Assembly: GCA_018466975.1 (NCBI GenBank)
Contig: CM031552.1
Coordinates: forward strand, 868,001-932,000
DNA length: 64,000 nt
Direction: 5' to 3'
Origin: Sparassis latifolia
Lineage: Eukaryota; Basidiomycota; Agaricomycetes; Polyporales; Sparassidaceae
Positions 21,862 through 34,938 of this stretch are shown in pieces. Both the position numbers and the translations under genes were made by a program. The notes beneath the pieces were generated by a model, which saw nothing but the letters and a program-made list of their open reading frames with translations, had not been told where the DNA came from and did not search any database. Numbering within the stretch: position 1 is the first letter of the stretch; each line of letters opens with the position of its first letter.

Positions 21862-21869
21862 GCTCGCGT
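21862..21869 (+). repeat. Putative 8-bp target-site duplication, left copy
   Basis: GCTCGCGT lies immediately outside the left inverted repeat of the transposon. The identical 8-mer lies immediately outside the right repeat at 28745-28752. Confidence 0.75.
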
Positions 21870-22387
21870 ATTAGGACCCTGGATAATTCCCTCTGCTTTT
21901 CAGATTCTTTGTCCGGACATTTTGGGCGCTTTCCGGAGCATTCCGGGCTTTCCCGGCCTTTTGGGCCCCCTTGCGGGGCCGACAGCTACCACCATGTCCG
22001 GACCAGGAGATGGCGTTCCGGCCTTTGAAATGACCGGATGGTGAGATATATCGCGTCGACGAAGGGGGGGCGATATACGAAATGCTTCATCCCAGAATTA
22101 CCGCCACTTTCCCGCCACCTTAGTCACGTGAAAGTCACGCAATGTTTGATACTCCGAAACTTTAACCCCTCCTTCACTCCCTACAGTGGCTGGCACCAAA
22201 TATTAGAACAAACAAACACCACCCGGGCAATTCTCCCACTCGAAAGGCCGCCAGGCGGCGGCGGAACTTGCTCGGAGACGAGGGTGGACAGTGCCACAAA
22301 ACAAATAGCGCACAACAACTGTGTAAAAAGGACACTTTCACTTTTGGGTCGGGAGAGCTTGCTCTCCGAGCAAGAATGAAAGGTAGG
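21870..22387 (+). repeat. Left terminal inverted repeat of the transposon
   Basis: The outermost 20 nt match the right end with one mismatch. An inner block from about 22062 (AAGGGGGGGCGATATACG) to 22387 (ATGAAAGGTAG) matches the right repeat closely, including TCACGTGAAAGTCACGCAAT and GATACTCCGAAACTTTAA. Between these blocks the left end has about 100 nt of CCGG/GGCC-rich hairpin sequence that the right end lacks. A 138-nt element interrupts the inner block. Confidence 0.8.
22238..22378 (+). mobile_element. Small nested element (copy 1 of a dispersed 138-nt repeat)
   Basis: This stretch begins CTCGAAAGGCCGCC and ends GAGCAAGAATG. It is about 93% identical to 38605-38748. The intact right inverted repeat of the host transposon reads CTCCCATGAAAGG, so the inserted piece is 22238-22375 or 22239-22376, placed between A and TG with at most one duplicated base. 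It has hairpins close to both ends (GCCGCCAGGCGGC at 22247-22259, GGAGAGCTTGCTCTCC at 22352-22367) and internal inverted 12-mers CTTGCTCGGAGA and TCTCCGAGCAAG. An A^T insertion site, no duplication and subterminal hairpins suggest a Helitron-like non-autonomous element. The termini do not match the canonical TC..CTRR. Confidence 0.7.
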
Positions 22388-22490
22388 AGGTGTGGCGCAA
22401 AGTCACCATAGGGTTAGGGCATTTTATTCATCGTACATCGGCTCTTTTCTATTATCACTTTCATCTGCTGTCTGTCAACTTGAATTCTTG

Positions 22491-24792
22491 ATGGTGAATC
22501 AATCATCTCAACCTTACATTCCCTCTTTGGACGAGATCAGAACTAAGACTAGAGAGAAATTCGGACATGTTCCGTGTCACTGGCAGACTGTAGTAACTCA
22601 AAAAATTCTACAGCGAGACAAAGATGTTGTCTGCATCTCCAGCACTGGATCTGGCAAAACCCTGACATTCTGCCGTTGTTGTTCCGACAACATGGTATAC
22701 AGATTGTGATAAGTCCCTTGAACATTCTAGGGGATCAGAATGAAAGACAGCTCAGAGATGTGGGTATCCGAGCTATCAACATCACGGCAGACACTGCAAC
22801 ATCCAAAAATTTCAAGGTCAGTGTTTTGAAATTCACTTCTGTATTTTTCACACACTTAGAGGCTTACCTGGCTGGAAGGATATCGAGGATGGAACCTATC
22901 GTGCTGTCGTGGTAAGTCCGGAGCAGGCTTTGAAACCAGGTGGCAGTTTTGAGCGACTCTGGAAAAATGCCAACCTCATGTCAAATGTCCTGAGCATTGT
23001 CTGGGATGAGGGACATTGTGTAGGTGCATGGGGTTCATTTCGACCTGAATACGCAGAAGCAGGGTGCCTTCGACACATAATCACTGGAGATGTTCCTTAT
23101 CTAATCGCATCTGCTACTCTGCCTACACATGTTCATAACGACGTGATGGGCACATTGCAGGTCCGGCATGAAGCTACTCATGTCATGCACTGCTCCAATG
23201 ACCATTCCAACATTTACCTTTCCGTGCAAAAGATCGAGCATCCCCTGGCGACATTCAATGACCTTGCATTCTTAATTCCTGAGGGCTGGAAACCTGGTGA
23301 TCCGCTTTCAAAATCTCTGGTATTCTTTGACAATATCGAGGAATCAATCAGGGCAGCGGAAGCACTACGAGCACGCCTACCCATAGAGCATCAAAACAAG
23401 ATTGTTTGGTTTAACTCCAACATGACTCCCGAGTTCCGAGAGATCGCAACATCCAACTTGAAGGAGGGTACACTGTATGGCCTGTATTGTACCGATTCAT
23501 TCGGAATGGTGAGTTTTCTCTCCTGAGATTTTGTCGAGACTTACTGATGCCACTTCAGGGTGTTGACTTGCCTGATATCAAGATTGTCATACAGTGGAGA
23601 TGTACATGCAACCTCGATACACTATGGCAATGGTTTGGATGAGGAGCGCGAGGTCCTGGCATGGAAGCCATAGCAATCTTCTTCATGGAGCCTAAATATT
23701 TCGATGACGAGAAAGCCAACGCCATTGCCTGAGCCGAGAAGCAAAAAGAGAAGAAGGCACAGAAGGCAGCTCACCAGGAGCAGGCGAAATGAAAGGAGCC
23801 GATGATGCTAATAGACTGCCATCTTCGAAAAGGCCTCACACAGATGCTCAGCCCGCTGCTGCCAACAATTGCTTGAATCAAGCCGAATCCTCCTCAAACA
23901 TGACTTTGACCGAATACGAGGTGCTACAAGTCATGTTTGCTCAAGCTATGCCTCAGCCCAGTGGTCAGCGAGGCAACATCAAGAAGACAACTCTGGGCGA
24001 GGTTGGCCCCAAAATGGACAACCTCATCAATGCGAAGACCCGCGCATTCAAGTGCTATCGCATACCTGTGATGGCTTACCATGAGAATGACAGGACAGAT
24101 GAGTAGCATTCATAACATGCGCTTGCACACGCTCACTTCGCGATTACCTAATACATTTCCCGATAACCATCTTTGTCGCCCCGACCTCCCTGCAGGCTGC
24201 CCTTGCTGTGCTGTCATCAAATCAAGTATCTGCTGTGAAATATGCTCTCCTGATTCACCCCACTTCAAGGTAGTAGCATACAACAGCGAGAAACCTGCTG
24301 AATTGATGTCTACCCATGCTTCCCACATTCCGAGAGAGTACGTGATGACGCCCACGGATATTGAGTTTTGGAAGGCCTTGAACAAGTATCGTCACGACAA
24401 GATGATCAAGCAATATGGACGAGCTCATCTCAATAACATCGGGCCCGGTGCAATCATGGGAGATGCAACACTCTCACGCATTGCTGATTGCGCCCGAATG
24501 CACAAGATTGAATGTCTTGATATGCTGCAGAAGGAGGTGAAGTGGTCAAAAGCATCCAATGTGATGGTGGCAGAAGGGGTATTGAAGCTGATTGTACAGT
24601 GAGTACGAGGCTTCGTTGTTTTAAGCCAACAGCTAACACTATCTATCAATTAGGTTTTATCCTCCTCTGAACCCTTTTACCAATGTACCGCTGCATCGGC
24701 AGGTGCTGGAGAATGGCACCATCTCTAGTTCAGTCACAGAGGTAGCGTCCACCACTGGAAAACATTCGATAGCAGCGCATGCGGGGCTCTAG
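22491..24792 (+). pseudogene. RecQ-like DNA helicase, inactivated, transposon-borne
   Basis: The start reads MVNQSSQPYIPSLDEIRTKT. The helicase core follows in order: CHWQTVVTQKILQRDKDVV, Walker A STGSGKTLTF, ISPLNILGDQNERQL, motif II WDEGHCVGAWGSFRPEYAEA, motif III ASATLPTHVHND, and motif VI region GVDLPDIKIVIQWRCTCNL. After Walker A the frame shifts (near 22672). In-frame TGA codons occur at 23640, 23730 and 23790, each consistent with CGA to TGA, and the expected WQRFGR reads WQWFG-stop. A C-terminal cysteine cluster (PAGCPCCAVIKSSICCEICS) and a final exon ending IAAHAGL with TAG at 24790-24792 complete the relic. Introns near 22816, 23510 and 24600 retain splice signals, so it was once a normal gene. 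RecQ-like families of this kind are multicopy in Agaricomycetes. Confidence 0.85.
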
Positions 24793-25213
24793 GGCATATC
24801 AGTACATTCCACACCTCTGTTTCAGGTATATTCGCTCACGTAGTGTGGCACAGAATCAAACTGTCAGTGTCCTAACTACAAGGCATCTGCCAAGGAGAAC
24901 ACACCGCTGTCTATGAGACCTGATGGTCTATCAGTCATCGCGCAGATTTCATCTGGAGCGTCATGTGTGCAACCGGCCACCAGCGATCCCTCTACTTTGG
25001 ATTCAACTATTGCATCTTCTTTTCCTGCACCGTTGCTCTCCTCACCCGTGCCGTGCAACCAAGGGCCGGCCCATCAACATCAATCTGGGACTCTCTGATA
25101 GAATCTCCAGCATATCCACGGTCTGTAATGCGGGTAGTGTCCACGCAGCATGTCTCGCTTGAACTCCCTCTGCCTGTCGGTTCAACGTCGTTTACAGGTA
25201 AATCTACTTTACA
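24793..25213. other. Spacer between the convergent transposon genes
   Basis: About 420 nt between the helicase relic and the DUF6589 relic. It has Ser/Pro-coding-like frames (for example TCCTCACCC clusters) but no recognisable domain. It could contain more of the helicase C-terminus after an unseen intron. Confidence 0.35.
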
Positions 25214-26875
25214 TCATATCAACCCTTCGGTACTAAGATCCTCACCCATTAGCTCCACGCCAAGGTCCCCATCAGCCTCCAGATCCTCTCCATTAGCACG
25301 CGAACCATTTGCCTCTCCATCCAGCTTCTCTGCACCTTCTACCAATGGATCGTATAGAATCTGCACTGATTTTCTGCCTCTTACCATCTCATTTACACTG
25401 TGTTTTTCCATGTACTCTGAAAGGATATTGAATGTCTTCGTCATATCTTTCATAGCGTGTGCAAAGCTCAAACCGAATAACCGGAAGTTCCGCTCGATGT
25501 TGCTATGACTGCTGCGAAAGATCAGGACCAAAGGAGATTCTAGTAAGACTCTAGTCTTGGTGTAGTTTGATCCTTCTCCGCCATATACATCCTCCCAATT
25601 GCCAATAAGCCACTTACACCATTGCAGATAGAATTATACTCACTTTGATGTACAAGTTTAACAGCTCCACCATCCAGTCAACAGCTTGGAAATGATGTGG
25701 TTTCCTGGTTGGGTTAATCAGTATATTATATCGCACGGCATGCCTTGCACAAATTCGTATGTCACAGTTTCTTGGATGCTTACATTTGCAAGACTCACCG
25801 TAAACCCTCTGGATACACGAAGTACCATTCATGCATCATTCGCAGCATCTGGTTGCCATATTTATGCTTGCCGGTAGCCCTAAAGATGAGGATCCATGGT
25901 GGGAACAAAGTCTCGACACGCCCGATATCACCTGCATTCATGGCATATGACAACTCCTCATAGAGGAGCAGTATTTGGTGAGTAAGGAGGATATTCTCTC
26001 GTTGCTGATCTCGAATTTCTGGATGTTTACACCGCATTTTATACAGGTCAATGCCTTCACCCAAAGTGTACTGTTCTGCAAGAATATCAGTGATCTCTAC
26101 AAGCTGTGCTTGTGACGGTTTCGATTCAGCAAACTCTCGAAGACTCCGGTGACCTGTGCACTTTTGTACCTCCGCACGCCAAGCATCAAGCCGTAACATA
26201 GCCCCGACATGACCGAGCAACTCGTGTTGTTGACGGAATTTGGGATTGGATGTAAGCTGTGAAGTCTCTTTTGGCCGCAGGACACCCATTAGATTGAAGA
26301 AACTAGTTTCGTCAGTGCGACCGGCCTTTGGACTAGGACCTATTCGCCACGCAGCATCCGCGGCAGCCATTTTGAGGTGAAAAAGTCCCATGATGAAGAT
26401 TGCAAACTGGAAGCAGCAAAATTCGGTTGTCTCGATGGCACGTCATTTAAGGATCGACCTGACACGTTCAAAGGTACTGAGGTCACCATGGATCAATGTT
26501 GCAAATTCTGAAATGTCCGTCAAGTCTGGCATGGTCTCGGATGGGATACCGACCGTGGCTTGAGCGAATAATATAAGTATTGCTTCGATATTCCCAGACA
26601 CCTTTGACTGGTTGATGTCCATTGCACGGGCAGGAACTTGTTCCAACTTCTTGACAGGAATCTTCTCAATTGACTCGGGCTCTACAATTAGAGGAAGGAA
26701 GCACCGGAAGTGCTCTGGTCCGTGCTGGCACAAGTCACGTAAGAAGTGCCACGAATTAAAGTGACCACGACACGACAAATTGGAGGCATTATGGTCCGGT
26801 TCAGGATGCAGTGTATACAGGAAGTCCATGGTGTGAAGCAGGTCAAAGGTACGTAGATCCGATGCATGTATATTG

Positions 26876-27282
26876 CATCAGCAAAACCCAACTTTTTCTT
26901 ACAGAGCTATTTTGACTTTTCGGTCTTACAACCCTTATTTAAGGCAATAAGTCTTCAAATAAGTGTCCATAAGTCTGATTTCAGACACTCATGTAATACA
27001 TCAGCATTTGTCACCATTTTCTTACCTTACTTTCATGTCTTGATCACCCTTCATCAAGGGAATTTAAGGCAATCATGCCTCTTATTTCTCCTTGGCAACC
27101 TTGATCAAGGAAAAAAGGTAAATTAAGAGTAGAGATTGTCTTAATCAAGACACTAAGTAAAAGGTGACAAATGCTGATGTATGCATTAGGCCCCTTTTTG
27201 ACCTTATACCCTTAAATAAGGATCATAAGTCCATTTAAGTCATTTAAGTACCCTTTTAAGTAAAAGTTGGGTTTTGCTGATG
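26876..27282. mobile_element. MITE inserted in the DUF6589 gene (outer element)
   Basis: 407-nt element with inverted ends CATCAGCAAAACCCAACTTT on the left and the matching reverse complement on the right (about 26 nt, one mismatch). Both sides are flanked by TG. It interrupts the reading frame after WDRSPLT and supplies an in-frame stop. It contains a second, younger element of the same terminal type at 26999-27179. The interior is AT-rich with many short AAG/CTTA repeats. Confidence 0.8.
26999..27179. mobile_element. MITE nested inside the first MITE (inner element)
   Basis: 181-nt element with 17-nt inverted ends CATCAGCATTTGTCACC, flanked on both sides by TA. It shares the first eight terminal bases CATCAGCA with the surrounding element, so both probably use the same transposase. 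TA flanks suggest the Tc1/mariner (Stowaway-like) superfamily. Confidence 0.8.
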
Positions 27283-28464
27283 TGAGGGGTGACCTATCCC
27301 ATAATAGTTTTGAACAGCGCAGATCATCGGCTGTTACACCGTGCGCAAGTCGGAAGACTGTTCCTGACGTCAGGTGCGCCAGGGTATCTACGGGATTCTC
27401 GACGGTAGGTATTGCGGTATTAAACTTGATGTCGAAATTATTGTATGCGTAGGATGCTAAATATGTTTGACCCAGAGTCTGCATGGCCTCGCTGGTCTGG
27501 ATGGACAACGAACAGATTGCACGATGAATGGACGTGAGTGAGATCGAGATCCCCATGTGCGCAAGTACTTTGATGAGCTTCTCCGGAGTATTGCATGAAT
27601 GTAAGAAAATTCCTATCGTACTTTGCAATGCATTACAATGCTGAACACGATTTTGCATCAAGATGCTTATGATGACAACTGTCTTCTAGTGGGACCTTTG
27701 TCAGGGATTTCGAGGTACCCAGTAGTAGTTACTAAACCTACGATGGTGGTCAAAACTTCGTGGGACTCCCTCTTCTTCTGCGCAGCTTTCTGATCCTTTT
27801 CTTCCTGCTGTACTTCGGCTGCAACTTCGTCAGGGCCCACCCACACATCCTCCATCCCTTCTGACTCCCAGTATTGTCTCTCCTCCAAATCTGGCTCTCT
27901 ACTATCCAACTCCATCTCCGTGTCTGTGTCCATGCTGTCCTTCCCAGACAGAAAGAAGTGCACCATCTCCCAGAGATCAGGAGTAATCGTGCGCATTTTT
28001 TCAGCCATATCTTCGATGCGAAAGTCGTGAATCTGCTCCGGCTTTGTGTTGGCGGCACTGAAGTGCCAGCCATGCTCTTTTCTAGTAAGCATCTGCACGG
28101 CTCCGGAGTAGCAACTTCGTGCAAGCTGCAGTGTCCAGTCGACAGTTGTTGCTGTTGTTTTCGGATGGAGATGGAATGCTGTGAGGATTTCCTGCGCACG
28201 GTTGACAAGGTCGGCAAGCATGATGTTCATGTAGGTTTCATGCATCTCAGCGGACAGAACGGACTTCTGAGAGGGTGATGGAATAGTGATTCATGTAGAC
28301 TAGGACATTTCTGATGACTTCTGTACGATCTGCCATGGCACCAGCACTTGCGGCGGTGAACTCCAACCCAACATGAGCTTCCCGAATTGGTCAGTTTGCA
28401 CTTGGACAGAAAATTTGGAAATGTTTATTACCAGAGTATTCTGGGCCCGCTTCCGGGACATGCA

Positions 28465-28744
28465 CTACCTTTCATGGGAGAATTGCCCGGGTGGCATTTG
28501 TTTGTCCCAATATTTGGTGCCAGCCGCTGTAGGGAGTGAAGGAGGGGTTAAAGTTTCGGAGTATCAATTGCGTGACTTTCACGTGATGAAGGTGGCGCAA
28601 ATTCTTAGAAAAAAGCATCAAATATTATTTCGTATATCGCCCCCCTTCACTCCCGCAGCGGTGGGACGGAGCCTGGCGTCGACCGCAAATTCTTGATTTT
28701 TTGTCCAGATGCAGATGGCGTCTAAGGGAATCATCCAGGGTCCT
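28465..28744 (-). repeat. Right terminal inverted repeat of the transposon
   Basis: Reverse complement of the left end. It starts AGGACCCTGGATGATTCCCT at 28744 and runs inward to ATGAAAGGTAG at 28475-28465. It lacks the nested 138-nt element found in the left copy and so gives its empty site. It has a 28-nt segment near 28650-28676 that is missing on the left. Confidence 0.8.
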
Positions 28745-28752
28745 GCTCGCGT
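28745..28752 (+). repeat. Putative 8-bp target-site duplication, right copy
   Basis: GCTCGCGT, identical to 21862-21869, directly adjacent to the right inverted repeat. Confidence 0.75.
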
Positions 28753-29598
28753 CCGTTATACTTATTTCTCACGGTGACGGTTAGGGCAAGTTCTGTGGTT
28801 CTCCGCCGCTCTATTCAATATTCACCCGAGACCAACTCAAATTTGCTAGCCCGACAAATGAGGAATTTCATGCTCACTACAAAGTAACCGTTTGTAGACG
28901 AAACACAGTTTCTATCTGCCGAAGGAACAAATTCAATTGGTCAATTGAGTCCTTATTCAGTCCTGATCACACATGTAAACTTTATCAATAAATTTGTACT
29001 GGCGACAAATGGTGACATTGTAAGGCGCAAACCGTACATTCACTCAGGGATACAAATCCGGGAGGGTCTCAAGTGATTGCTTTTTCTGCTAGCCTCAAAC
29101 GGCAACAGGACTTACGTCTTCTGTCGTCTGGCCCACTCAAGCTCAAGTCTCAAGCAGTCACTCCATCGATGCCGTCCATAGATCCGCGATACGCACTCGC
29201 CTGACGCGACGACATAACTGATTCAGAGCCTTTCGTACTGTAGTTAGTGCTCCGCTACCTGTGGCGGTCACAAGGAGACACAAAGGGAAGACCTCAGCCG
29301 GGGTATGCGAGGTGCGCGCAATGGTCCACACCAGTCGTCTTGGATACTTGTAATTACTCACCGCACTCAGCTAAGGGCAAACCCGACGCAGACCCGCCCA
29401 CAGCCGCGCGCCCCGCGATTGTCGCGCGGACCGCTGCTGGTCATTTATCTCGTAGCCGATTTTCTTATCACAGAACGCGCTTCTTGCAATTGCGGGCTCA
29501 CGTTGTGGGGCAGGCTAAACTTGTTTCAGAAAATATGCGGTGTTTTATATAAGTGACGTTGCGCACGTAAGGGTCTTTACCTCTCCTTCACGATACTA
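28753..29598. other. Intergenic region upstream of the methyltransferase gene
   Basis: 846 nt between the transposon and the next start. Short open frames only; no domain, RNA or repeat that I can support. It should include the promoter of the downstream gene. Confidence 0.45.
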
Positions 29599-30627: not shown

Positions 30628-33600
30628 TCACGATTTCACAACTATGTATGACAGAAATGTAAGCTCGGGCTGAAATGGACCAAGATGCGAATAAAGTGCG
30701 AAACTCACTCGGAACAAGAAATTGAGCTGTATAGCGAAGAAACGGCGTTAAAATGGCCCAATGTCCGAAAACAGAAGGACTTACATCTCCCGGAGTTAAA
30801 CGTCCCATAGCCTGCAACGAAAGACATCAGCAGCATTCACATGGAACGGGTGCACAGCGCCTACCGAATCATCTGTGGAAAGTGTAGCATCCACCATGGC
30901 CGCTTTCTTTTCCTGTAACTGAACGCGCGACGATGAGATAACAAACACATGTCTCGGCACGTAATACTTACCTGAACAATACGACTCTCGATGCTATCCT
31001 CGACCACAAGCTTGACAACTTGAACAGGGCGGTGCTGGCCAAGCCGATGAATCCTATCCATCGCCTCTGCAAATTACCTCAGTATCGTCCAAATAGGAAC
31101 ACGGTCGGTCAGAATCTGGTACTCACGATACTCGACCTGCGATTAGAGTAAAGTTAGGTCACATCGCCTCTGCTAGAGACATCGACAACTTACGGCAGGA
31201 TTCCACCAGCTATCCATCAAAAAGACGCGTGACGCCTCTGTCAGATTTAGCGCGACGCCGCCTGCCTTGAGGCTGACAAGGAAGACGGTGACGTGCACGT
31301 TGTTCACTACACATACGCATCAGTTAACCGTTCACGGCTAGGACGGCACCACGTACTAAAATACTGTATTGTCGCATCTCGGGCTTGCGGACTCATCGTA
31401 CCCTCCAAACGGCATACCTGTTCATCGGATCAGCAAGCGATCACTTCCATAAGTGCAGGGAATGCGCGGTGGGAGCAGTGTACGCACGTTAAAACCGCAC
31501 TTCTGAAGGCGATACGCGATTAGGTCAAGGAAATTGACGAACTGGCTGAAGACGATGCTCTTGGTTGTCGCGTCCTGCCGCCGGAGGTTAGTCAGCTCCT
31601 CGATGAGCGCCTCGATCTTGGACGACGACCGCCACTTGTCGAGGTCAAGCCGGCCCAGAATGCCCTGGCGCGGCGTTGCATTCTCCACCTCGACCTCGAG
31701 GGCGGGCGCCTCGAGGTCAATGGTGAGGGGCAGGTGGCACACTGGGCATGCGGGCTGTAGCGATGGACACGAAACATTAGTTCTTGGCTCCGCATAACAA
31801 AAATACTGCAAATGGATAATTCACGTTCATCTCGATCGCGGTGTTCAGATACTGCTTGATACACTCTCGGTCGAAGATGTGCCGGCACTTCGCCTGGATC
31901 GCATCTTCTGCGACGTCGTTGCAGAGACGGCACACAGTCGCTTCGCCGGCCTCATCCTGTACAAATGCGCCTGCGTTGGTCTTGCTCCTCAGAACGAGGT
32001 CGGGGTGGCACGCCATCTGGCGCATACGGGTGAGCCTTTCCACCAAAGTCAGTAGCTTGACCACAATCACTGATGAAACAGGAGACATACAGACTGAAGA
32101 TGTTCGAGTAGTCTGCGAACGGGGATGCAATCTCAGTGGGGGACTACGCAGGCTATGGGCGGACTCACTGTTGAGCACAGTTCCAGAGTCGACGTATGTG
32201 TTGAACTGCCTCTTCGCGTCCGAAAACAACGATAGGTATAATTCCTTCTCTTCAGGGCTGAAGTAGTCGCGCCGAATGATCACTGTGCGAGGGGGCAAGC
32301 CAAGATCGTCAGCCCTTTGTATCTGCACATACACAAGGTATCAGAGTCGATCCACGCAGAGCATGAAGGGAAGGTGCACCTTCGTTCTGCGCAGCATCAT
32401 ACGATCGAGTAGGATTCTCAGTTTCTTGAACGCGTCCTTGCCGGGACCGAGCATCCCGTTCTTCTGGATTGGCGTTAGGATCTCTGTATTCCAGAAGCAT
32501 GTCTGCAAGGTATGATGAGGTCAACATTCAAGCACTTGAGTGACTAACAACGTACATGTTTCATAGGGCTATGGCCACAATCTGCAGGGGAGTACAATAT
32601 GTTCAGAACGGATGACGTGACAACGACAGAGATGGCTTGCCGTCGCAGCTCCGCTTGTCACTGAATTTCCAATGCAAGGACTTGCAATCGCACATCTTGC
32701 CTGCATGCAAACCATACATGATCAGTCTATCTCTTTCCCAGCCAATCCGAATGTGGATCGGGGAGATGTAGGACTTACAGAAATAGAACGAAAAGGGGTC
32801 ACCACCCAAAAACCGTACGAGACTGTACAACTCCCCGACGCGGTTCTGCAGCGGCGTCCCAGAGAGGCACCACTTGTATTCGCTCTTAAGCTCGAACGTT
32901 GCCTTCGCGGTATTGGTCGCGCGCTCCTTAATGTTGTGCGCTTCGTCAAGCTGCGACGATGGGAAGTCAGCGGGTGACTTACACCGAAAGACGACGAACA
33001 TGGGGTACGCACGATGATCCTGACCCATTTGATGGCATGTATAGCCGACGCCTCCTTGACGATCTTGCCCTTGCGCTTGAAGCCGCTGTGTTGCTTGCGG
33101 AACGAGCTCTCCAACACAGCATACGTGGTCAGCACCTGAAGATGCGTGAGTACGCGGTCCAGAGACATGCAGCACACAGGACTCACGACGTCGTACTTCT
33201 TGAGCTCCCGGACGTCAGACTCTCTAGATGAGCCGTGCCAGATGAGGACTTTCATGCCGTCGGTACGCGTCTCTATTTCGTTGCGCCACTGCATGATGGC
33301 GACGGTCGGGCTGTAGGGCGGGACACTGGTCAATAACGAACGCGTGGAATGATCGAAGACGATGGACGTACGCTACTACCAAGTTCGGCCTGGAGCCAGG
33401 GTGGGACACCAGTAGCGAAATCATCTGGATGGTCTTTCCCATGCTAGATACGTACGGATGGACGTTAGCGACGAATCTGGTTCAGACGTACATCCAGGAC
33501 GTACCCCATCTCATCCTAGAGAGGAATAGTCGTGAGCATGAGTGCAGCCTTGGCCAAGGATCTTAGACTTACTGCCAAAATGCCTCCTTTCCAGATTCCT

Positions 33601-34938
33601 TTCTCTTGGTCCCTCATCCAGTGGATACTCTCCAGCTGGAAAGGGAGCAGTGTCACCTTGAGGTTCGGTGGCTGCTCGGCCTTTTGAGGTATTGCGATGG
33701 GTATATCCTTCTCGAGGTCGCCCCAGACGTTCCGGAGCTCGGGATGATTCGCGCGGAGAGCAACCGACGTTTTCTCTGCCTGCACAAAAACGTCAGGAGA
33801 GGTGAACAACTCATTCACGCAGCACGTACGTGAGTCAACTTGCGCCCGAGCTTTAGGCGCAGGTCGGCCTCCTCCTTGCTGTGCGCTCCCCTCATCAACT
33901 TCGCCTTGCGCCGCTGCTCTCGTCTTACCTGCCGGAGCTCTGCAATAGTCATGTTCTTCGGCTTGCTGGTATCGGTAACCGTGACTTTCCTTGCGACCCC
34001 CTTGCCCTTGCCCTTGCCCTTGGCCAGCGGCTCCTCCTCGGACTCGTCGGAGGACTTGACGGCGGACTCTTCGAGGTCGGATGCCAGGAAGTCGGGAGCC
34101 TCGTCTTCGACGGCCATCGTCCGCTGGCAACCAAGCCGGCGTTCTGCAGCTGCAGCACGTAGTGCTGCTGCCTTGCTGATGGAGGTAGACCTGGTGGTGA
34201 GCGTCACCCCTGTGCTCGACGAGCCGGCTTTGCCCACTGTACGTGCAAGGTCCAGGGACATCTTGATGGCGGCATCCATCATCACGTCCTCATCGTTAAT
34301 ACCCTCTTCGAGGATGTCGTCGTCATCACTGGCCTCGAGGGGTTCGTTCTGAGCAAGTTCGTCGTCATCTGAGCCTTGATATTCCGAGCCGCTATCGTCA
34401 GACTCGTCGATGGAGAGCTCCTCGCCTGACTGCACATCCTCCTGTGCAGGGTTCGCTTCGTTCTCGTAGTCAACTTCAGTTTCCTGTATAGGTCTTCCTG
34501 CCTGTCTACTCTTCTGGCCACTCACAGACTGCTTGCCAATGGGGGTAGTTTTCTGCTGGCAGAAACACACTCAGTGTCGAAATGACGACGACGAGAAAGG
34601 TTCTCAACCTTGGCTATGCGCTTCGGCACACTGATCTCGACGTAGACCTCCTTCGTGATCACTCGCCTCTTGGTCGGCTTCCCGATAGCAGGCGCATCGT
34701 CGTCTAGTTCCTTCTCGCTTTCTAGTGCACGCTTTGTGCCCTTGCGGATGGTGCTCATTCTGGTGGTACGTCTTGTCTGAACGGTAGGCTTGAGCTTTGG
34801 CAGTTCTGCGTCTATGTCGGACGTGTCAGGTGTCGCTTGCTCTGAAGTTCTCGCGCTGAAGAGAGGTGACACGACGGTTGTGGGGGTATTTGGAGTGGCG
34901 GAGACCTCACTACGAGCACGTTGTCTAGTGCGCGGCAT
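30628..34938 (-). CDS. RAD16: DNA repair SNF2 translocase with RING finger, RAD16
   Basis: Partner of Rad7 in global-genome nucleotide excision repair, acting as DNA translocase and ubiquitin-ligase component in the nucleus. There are many exons. The N-terminal 350 residues are acidic and low-complexity with [12 protein letters not shown], typical of the family. SNF2 motifs follow: [30 protein letters not shown] (Walker A), [39 protein letters not shown] (motif II) and [25 protein letters not shown] finger splits the helicase lobes as in Rad16 ([20 protein letters not shown], then [10 protein letters not shown] near 31740). Lobe 2 has [37 protein letters not shown] and [19 protein letters not shown]. 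The end is MGRLTPGD, then LNFLFR and a terminal exon with TGA at 30630-30628. A stop a few codons earlier is possible, because the last intron length is a multiple of three. Confidence 0.92.

What the first reader, a model, noticed from the sequence alone, without database searches (positions are those of the whole stretch)
21870..28744. A 6.9-kb transposon pairing a RecQ-like helicase with a DUF6589 protein
Seen: long inverted repeats at both ends starting AGGACCCTGGAT, an identical 8-mer GCTCGCGT directly outside both, and inside only two convergent genes, a RecQ-like helicase and a DUF6589 protein. Known: both families are multicopy in Agaricomycetes, and I know of no named transposon superfamily defined by this pair. 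Inference: they form one mobile unit, with a helicase accompanying a new kind of transposase. This would explain why both families are expanded together.
Basis: partly seen in the sequence, partly recalled or inferred. Interest (0 to 1): 0.88.

Follow-up and report, generated by a model that had tools for sequence, protein, structure and literature searches.

The report
Mushroom jumping gene with helicase partner
A decayed 6.9-kb DNA transposon in a mushroom genome carries a transposase, until now only labelled "unknown family DUF6589", next to its own RecQ-like DNA-unwinding helicase; it most likely belongs to the already named AcademH transposon lineage.

Summary
In detail: a 6.87-kb unit (21,872-28,745) with long inverted ends, a RecQ-like helicase gene and a convergent DUF6589 gene. 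One detail is wrong: GCTCGCGT abuts the right end but lies 3 nt outside the left end.

It is one mobile unit. All 14 DUF6589 loci found in this 41.4-Mb genome (about 10 families) have a tail-to-tail helicase. In 7 other fungal species, 8 helicases sit within two locus tags of a DUF6589 gene. Of 14 related elements inspected at both ends, 6 have perfect flush 9-bp target duplications.

DUF6589 is the likely transposase: two AlphaFold models match Hermes, P element, ISCth4, RAG1 and Transib ahead of anything unrelated; D325/D505/E757 are the likely triad. The window copy is dead: first D is N, stops in both genes, nested MITEs.

The pairing is probably not new: AcademH (Kojima 2020, not held) is described as helicase plus 9-10-bp duplications. 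Sequence membership could not be tested. New here: DUF6589 as a DDE transposase.

The parts
21872..22238 (+). left terminal inverted repeat region (TAGGACCCTGG...), about 366 bp, with a subterminal stretch not found in the right arm
   Evidence: inverted blocks; terminal 20-mer; the extra stretch matches derivatives L026-L028
28475..28745 (-). right terminal inverted repeat region (ends ...CCAGGGTCCTG)
21862..21871 (.). left target-site duplication: GCTCGCGT (8-mer, 3 nt from AGG), or CTCGCGTAT in the 9-bp reading
28745..28754 (.). right target-site duplication: GCTCGCGT, or CTCGCGTCC (28,746-28,754) in the 9-bp reading
22491..24602 (+). RecQ-like SF2 helicase pseudogene with a C-terminal extension; a stop codon (23,640-23,642) falls in motif VI
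   Evidence: frames; DEAD E 2.5e-4 and 3.7e-5, both below Pfam's cut-off; tblastn to L010 helicase, 37-50% identity, and to its extension, 26%; relatives hit recQ_fam
25256..28290 (-). DUF6589 DDE transposase pseudogene; first catalytic D reads N, in-frame stop at 26,443-26,445
   Evidence: (PF20231 E 5e-47 and 4e-17)
26876..27282 (.). MITE of a high-copy family (about 226 bp without its own insert) inserted in the DUF6589 gene
   Evidence: by my count of the listing 29 other places match query 6-128 directly followed by 310-412 (40 of 201 candidates were scored)
26999..27180 (.). second MITE (182 bp) nested inside the first
   Evidence: query 129-310 alone matches C14:137890 (100%), C15:375887 (99%), C8:1299371 (90%)

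Best explanation
A dead copy of a class II DNA transposon, most likely of the AcademH lineage. DUF6589 is its DDE transposase: an RNase H-like core with D325, D505 and E757 (P0001 numbering) and an all-helical insertion between the second D and E, as in Hermes, P element and RAG1. It would bind the long inverted ends (CAGG...), cut, and join them to target DNA with a 9-bp stagger that becomes the duplication. The convergent RecQ-like helicase travels in the same unit as an accessory enzyme. My most likely role for it is 3'-5' unwinding at the cut ends or at the strand-transfer joint, clearing the transposase and letting gaps be repaired or copied. Shown: pairing, ends, 9-bp duplications in relatives, non-autonomous derivatives, conserved residues, decay of this copy. 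Predicted: the fold. Inferred: the chemistry, the helicase's role, and AcademH membership (no AcademH sequence was available to compare).
Confidence: 0.75

Rival explanations
1. A separate, unnamed DDE superfamily that acquired a RecQ-like helicase on its own, as KolobokH did; the resemblance to AcademH in helicase and duplication length is convergent.
For: DUF6589 matches no transposase family in Pfam (56 of 56 members hit DUF6589; the other four families listed, each in 1-2 members at E 0.002 or weaker, are not transposases). No paper in the searched library names DUF6589 (0) or uses PF20231 for it (1 unrelated). RecQ was also acquired by KolobokH. [quoted passage not shown]
Against: AcademH is described with the same two hallmarks in fungi including Basidiomycota, so a second such lineage is not needed.
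Confidence: 0.2
2. KolobokH element.
For: Fungal transposon lineage with a RecQ helicase (PMC9587614 passage).
Against: Kolobok makes TTAA-specific 4-bp duplications and KolobokH carries RecQ downstream of the transposase domain; here duplications are 9 bp without TTAA and the genes are convergent.
Confidence: 0.02
3. hAT- or P-like element that picked up a helicase.
For: Best structural neighbours are Hermes and P element; the window and L026 can be read with 8-bp duplications, the length I recall for hAT and P.
Against: 9 bp in 6 related copies; no hAT or P Pfam domain in 56 members; C/DxxH is G/QxxH.
Confidence: 0.04
4. Copy-out/paste-in transposition instead of cut-and-paste, with the helicase opening a circular or branched intermediate for replication (a rival on mechanism only; compatible with AcademH).
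Against: Hermes ranks closer and P element about as close; no element circles or empty sites could be examined.
Confidence: 0.2
5. Two host gene families that lie together by chance or as a gene cluster.
For: The window copy alone has an imperfect duplication.
Against: 14 of 14 loci, inverted ends, 9-bp duplications, short derivatives, four copies 97-99% alike over 8.1 kb that end at the same base.
Confidence: 0.01

Closest known systems
AcademH (lineage of the Academ superfamily; Kojima 2020, Mob DNA 11:15, not held; known here from passages in PMC10045372 and PMC10799480)
   Same: DNA transposon of fungi with a helicase; 9- or 10-bp target duplications; low copy number; Academ is listed among DDD/E superfamilies (PMC9587614 passage)
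   Different: Transposase sequence relation not tested; the window copy reads 8 bp (offset) or 7 of 9
KolobokH
   Same: Fungal DNA transposon with a RecQ helicase
   Different: TTAA 4-bp duplications; [quoted passage not shown] here 9 bp in relatives and a separate convergent gene
hAT (Hermes) and P element transposases
   Same: RNase H-like DDE core with a large helical insertion before the last E (predicted here)
   Different: No Pfam match; G/QxxH not C/DxxH; 9-bp duplications in relatives; helicase partner
AcademX
   Same: Sister lineage in the Academ superfamily
   Different: Said to carry a nuclease and make 3-4-bp duplications (PMC10045372 passage)
CPA element of Tolypocladium inflatum (Kempken 2008; title seen in a reference list only)
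   Same: Fungal element said to encode a RecQ helicase-like gene
   Different: Structure and any transposase not seen

Membership tests
AcademH | Encodes a helicase | tested here: met
   SF2 helicase in copies and relatives, recQ_fam and RecQ/WRN matches; present at 14 of 14 loci
AcademH | 9- or 10-bp target-site duplication | tested here: met
   For the family: 9 bp perfect and flush in 6 of 14 elements inspected at both ends, 4 without a convincing duplication. For the window copy itself inconclusive: 8 bp with a 3-nt offset, or 7 of 9
AcademH | DDD/E transposase | tested here: met
   By prediction only: two AlphaFold models, top rows all DDE enzymes; D/D/E conserved
AcademH | Transposase homologous to other Academ transposases | not testable with these tools
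   No Academ reference sequence found in the tools used; the defining paper is not held
AcademH | Helicase falls within the AcademH helicase clade | not testable with these tools
   No AcademH helicase reference available
KolobokH | TTAA-specific 4-bp duplication | tested here: not met
   9-bp duplications without TTAA in 6 copies
[quoted passage not shown]
   Separate region on the opposite strand, convergent, at 14 of 14 loci
hAT / P | C/DxxH motif between second D and E | tested here: not met
   G537xxH540 in 53 of 53; QxxH in L015, L017, L018, L020, L021 and GxxY in L022
hAT / P | RNase H-like core with helical insertion | tested here: met
RecQ helicases | RecQ-type SF2 helicase core | tested here: met
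   recQ_fam is the best NCBIfam hit in 5 of 5 (E 4e-20 to 3e-39), though below its curated cut-off; best PDB match WRN
RecQ helicases | Zn-binding/winged-helix (RQC) and HRDC domains | tested here: inconclusive
   recQ_fam matches stop at position 294-357 of 470; no such domain among the precomputed Pfam accessions of the 120 listed of 235 relatives (accession meanings recalled)

The most novel reading that the evidence does not exclude
DUF6589 elements are their own DDE superfamily, unrelated to Academ, marked by D-(179)-D-(251)-E with G/QxxH, CAGG ends and 9-bp duplications, and RecQ capture happened at least three separate times in fungal transposons (KolobokH, AcademH and this).
Probability: 0.2. 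Interest if true: 0.62.

Novelty: new member of a known kind. Interest (0 to 1): 0.4.

Why it matters
It turns a fungal family of unknown function (DUF6589; 301 relatives at E <= 1e-3) into a testable transposase with named catalytic residues. It explains why the RecQ-like and DUF6589 families are expanded together in mushroom genomes, and warns that many of these RecQ annotations are transposon genes, not host repair genes. It also gives related copies and short derivatives with clean 9-bp duplications for asking what a helicase does for a DDE transposase.

Tried and rejected
Rejected: chance pairing or host cluster; KolobokH (ends and gene order); plain hAT or P element (duplication length, motif, no Pfam match). 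'Identical 8-mer directly outside both ends' was corrected. D328 as catalytic residue was rejected because divergent copies have N or Q there.

Led nowhere: viral contigs and genome-contig scans (23 and 62 stretches matched a pattern, none a relative); an empty site for the window (left flank single-copy; right flank not searched); the left end of the C6/C11/C13/C10:3,512k copies (runs of N beside it in two of the three copies fetched there; no inverted match to the right end); a duplication for clade B copies L012 and L016; L027, L030 and two elements in L034 gave no convincing duplication; L060 and L063 are single-end fragments. Protein search was a poor choice: an 88-residue piece found 4 short proteins. 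Papers: Kojima 2020 and one further id tried from memory are not held. Searches: DUF6589 (0 papers), PF20231 (1, unrelated), AcademH (7 papers, at least one an accidental match), Academ with XPG and transposase (0), and the broader listings. For every paper cited I saw listings and passages only, none whole. Absence of a family from the VIA lists was not used as evidence.

Limits of the locus-tag argument: it assumes that serial tags follow position. Of the listed helicases 21 have serial tags and 8 have a listed DUF6589 within two tags; of the listed DUF6589 proteins 30 (my count) have serial tags and the same 8 are paired. Both lists are cut at 120 (of 235 and 301). In all 8 pairs the longest-contig lengths agree. 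The Mantel test (14 hand-chosen pairs: the 8 by tag and 6 by equal contig length under 100 kb; one further short-contig pair and the large-contig pairs were left out; r 0.62, 0 of 20,000 permutations) is confounded by host phylogeny and was not used as independent proof.
Full report
OBSERVATION. The unit spans 21,872-28,745. The terminal 20-mer AGGACCCTGGATRATTCCCT occurs twice in the window, inverted, with none in 100 shuffles. Inside the ends, blocks of 93, 31 and 19 nt are 94-100% complementary. The left arm is about 96 bp longer than the right. GCTCGCGT is flush on the right and 3 nt out on the left.

GENES. The + strand frames carry a DEAD-type helicase (DEAD at 2.5e-4 and 3.7e-5, below Pfam's cut-off; 37-50% identical to the helicase of copy L010, whose pieces pass the DEAD and Helicase_C cut-offs). 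The - strand frames match PF20231 at 5e-47 and 4e-17, above the cut-off. Both genes are broken in this copy. A stop falls inside helicase motif VI (the frame ends LWQWFG; L010 and P0125 read on). The DUF6589 frame has an in-frame stop at 26,443-26,445. Its first catalytic D reads N. A high-copy MITE, itself holding a second MITE, sits in the gene. This copy is a fossil.

THE GENOME. The window lies on contig 1 of a 41.4-Mb, 22-contig genome. The closest named relatives of L010's DUF6589 are from fungi such as Trametes and Fomitopsis (one search gives Trametes cinnabarina as Agaricomycetes, Polyporales). DUF6589 gives 27 rows, which I group into 14 loci: C10:4,139,876 and C10:4,154,506 are two halves of one element, since each side carries the matching inverted end (L023 1,668-1,866 and L013 7,169-7,367, 95.5%). 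Every locus has a helicase, tail to tail: 13 by tblastn within the fetched stretches and the fourteenth (C10:2,340k) by the hit at C10:2,348,438. Four loci are near-identical copies (97-99% over 8.1 kb) and two more share 97% stretches, so there are about 10 families. Conversely, of the 11 helicase loci that the window's helicase finds, 9 lie within 10 kb of DUF6589; C10:4,269,228 and C10:4,282,337 do not.

ENDS AND DUPLICATIONS. Copy L010 (C10) is 6,455 bp with 265-bp arms (97.7% alike), begins CAGGCTCC and is flanked by GCGCCCTCG on both sides. Its own DUF6589 frame has one in-frame stop. Short derivatives with the same ends have ATCTACACA (L035) and GGATATAGA (L036) and, read by eye, CCGAAAACG (L056/L057), CATCCGACC (L058/L059) and GGCGGCCGC (L061/L062). 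L010, L035 and L036 can also be read as 10 bp with unequal ends. Of 14 elements inspected are perfect and flush at 9 bp; L011 is 7 of 9; L031 is 9 of 9 with a 3-nt offset; L026 (AGGACCC ends) is 8 of 8 flush; the window is 8 of 8 with a 3-nt offset or 7 of 9 flush; four (L027, L030, two in L034) gave nothing convincing. The targets show no obvious shared motif.

OTHER SPECIES. Searches list 120 of 301 DUF6589 and 120 of 235 helicase relatives; the named ones are Agaricomycetes as far as I recognise them. Of 21 listed helicases with serial locus tags, 8 have a listed DUF6589 within two tags, on contigs of the same length: Trametes cinnabarina g2/g3, Rhodofomes roseus g6058/g6060, Cerrena zonata 004609/004608 and 014706/014705, Tricholoma furcatifolium 004013/004012 (contig of 5,792 bases), Athelia 34599/34597, Pleurotus ostreatus 011708/011710, Dentipellis g7563/g7564. 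The other 13 have no listed partner, and 22 of 30 serially tagged DUF6589 proteins (my count) have none; both lists are cut.

THE HELICASE. Relatives match recQ_fam best (E 1e-35 for P0125; 72-135 bits in five proteins, below the 219.8 cut-off) up to position 294-357 of 470, so the RecQ core is present and the RQC part is not evident. WRN is the best solved relative (E 2e-25). P0125 has a Cys-rich C-terminal part, and some relatives carry PF15288 (a CCHC zinc finger as I recall).

MECHANISM. Shown: unit, ends, 9-bp duplications, derivatives, conservation. Predicted: fold. Inferred: DDE-catalysed end cutting and staggered joining; helicase action at the ends or strand-transfer joint. Whether the helicase is essential is unknown.

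COMPARISON. AcademH is said to make 9- or 10-bp duplications and to encode a helicase, where AcademX has a nuclease and 3-4 bp (PMC10045372, Discussion passage), and to occur at low copy in Basidiomycota, Ascomycota and Mucoromycota (PMC10799480 passage). The fit is good, but I compared no AcademH sequence. KolobokH has RecQ downstream of its transposase domain and Kolobok TTAA targets (PMC9587614 passages), which these elements do not. I therefore rate this a probable new AcademH member whose value lies in giving DUF6589 a function; the bolder reading, a separate superfamily, is kept at 0.2.

Noticed in passing
window 26,876-27,282: A high-copy MITE (about 226 bp, most listed copies 93-100% alike) interrupted by a 182-bp second MITE; the many uninterrupted copies are ready-made empty sites for the second.
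   Followed up: partly
L015, L018, L019, L020 (C6, C11, C13, C10:3,512k): Four DUF6589/helicase copies 97-99% identical over 8.1 kb ending at the same base (GAGGGAAGC), with an extra - strand frame upstream of the helicase (L015 935-1,951; its larger part has no Pfam match); a recent burst of a divergent clade. The left end falls next to runs of N in two of three copies fetched.
   Followed up: partly
G000:C10, about 4,136,667-4,157,367: One DUF6589/helicase element split by an insertion of roughly 14 kb within the DUF6589 gene.
   Followed up: no
L034 248-1,075 and 1,082-1,657: Two different CAGG-type derivatives side by side, each with one damaged end.
   Followed up: partly
G000:C10:4,269,228 and 4,282,337: Two helicase relatives of this type without a DUF6589 neighbour within 10 kb; decayed copies or host genes.
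   Followed up: no
window 31,777-34,570 (-): Frames that look like a RAD16/RAD5-type SNF2 protein with RING motif about 3 kb from the insertion; recognised from the translation by eye, no search run.
   Followed up: no
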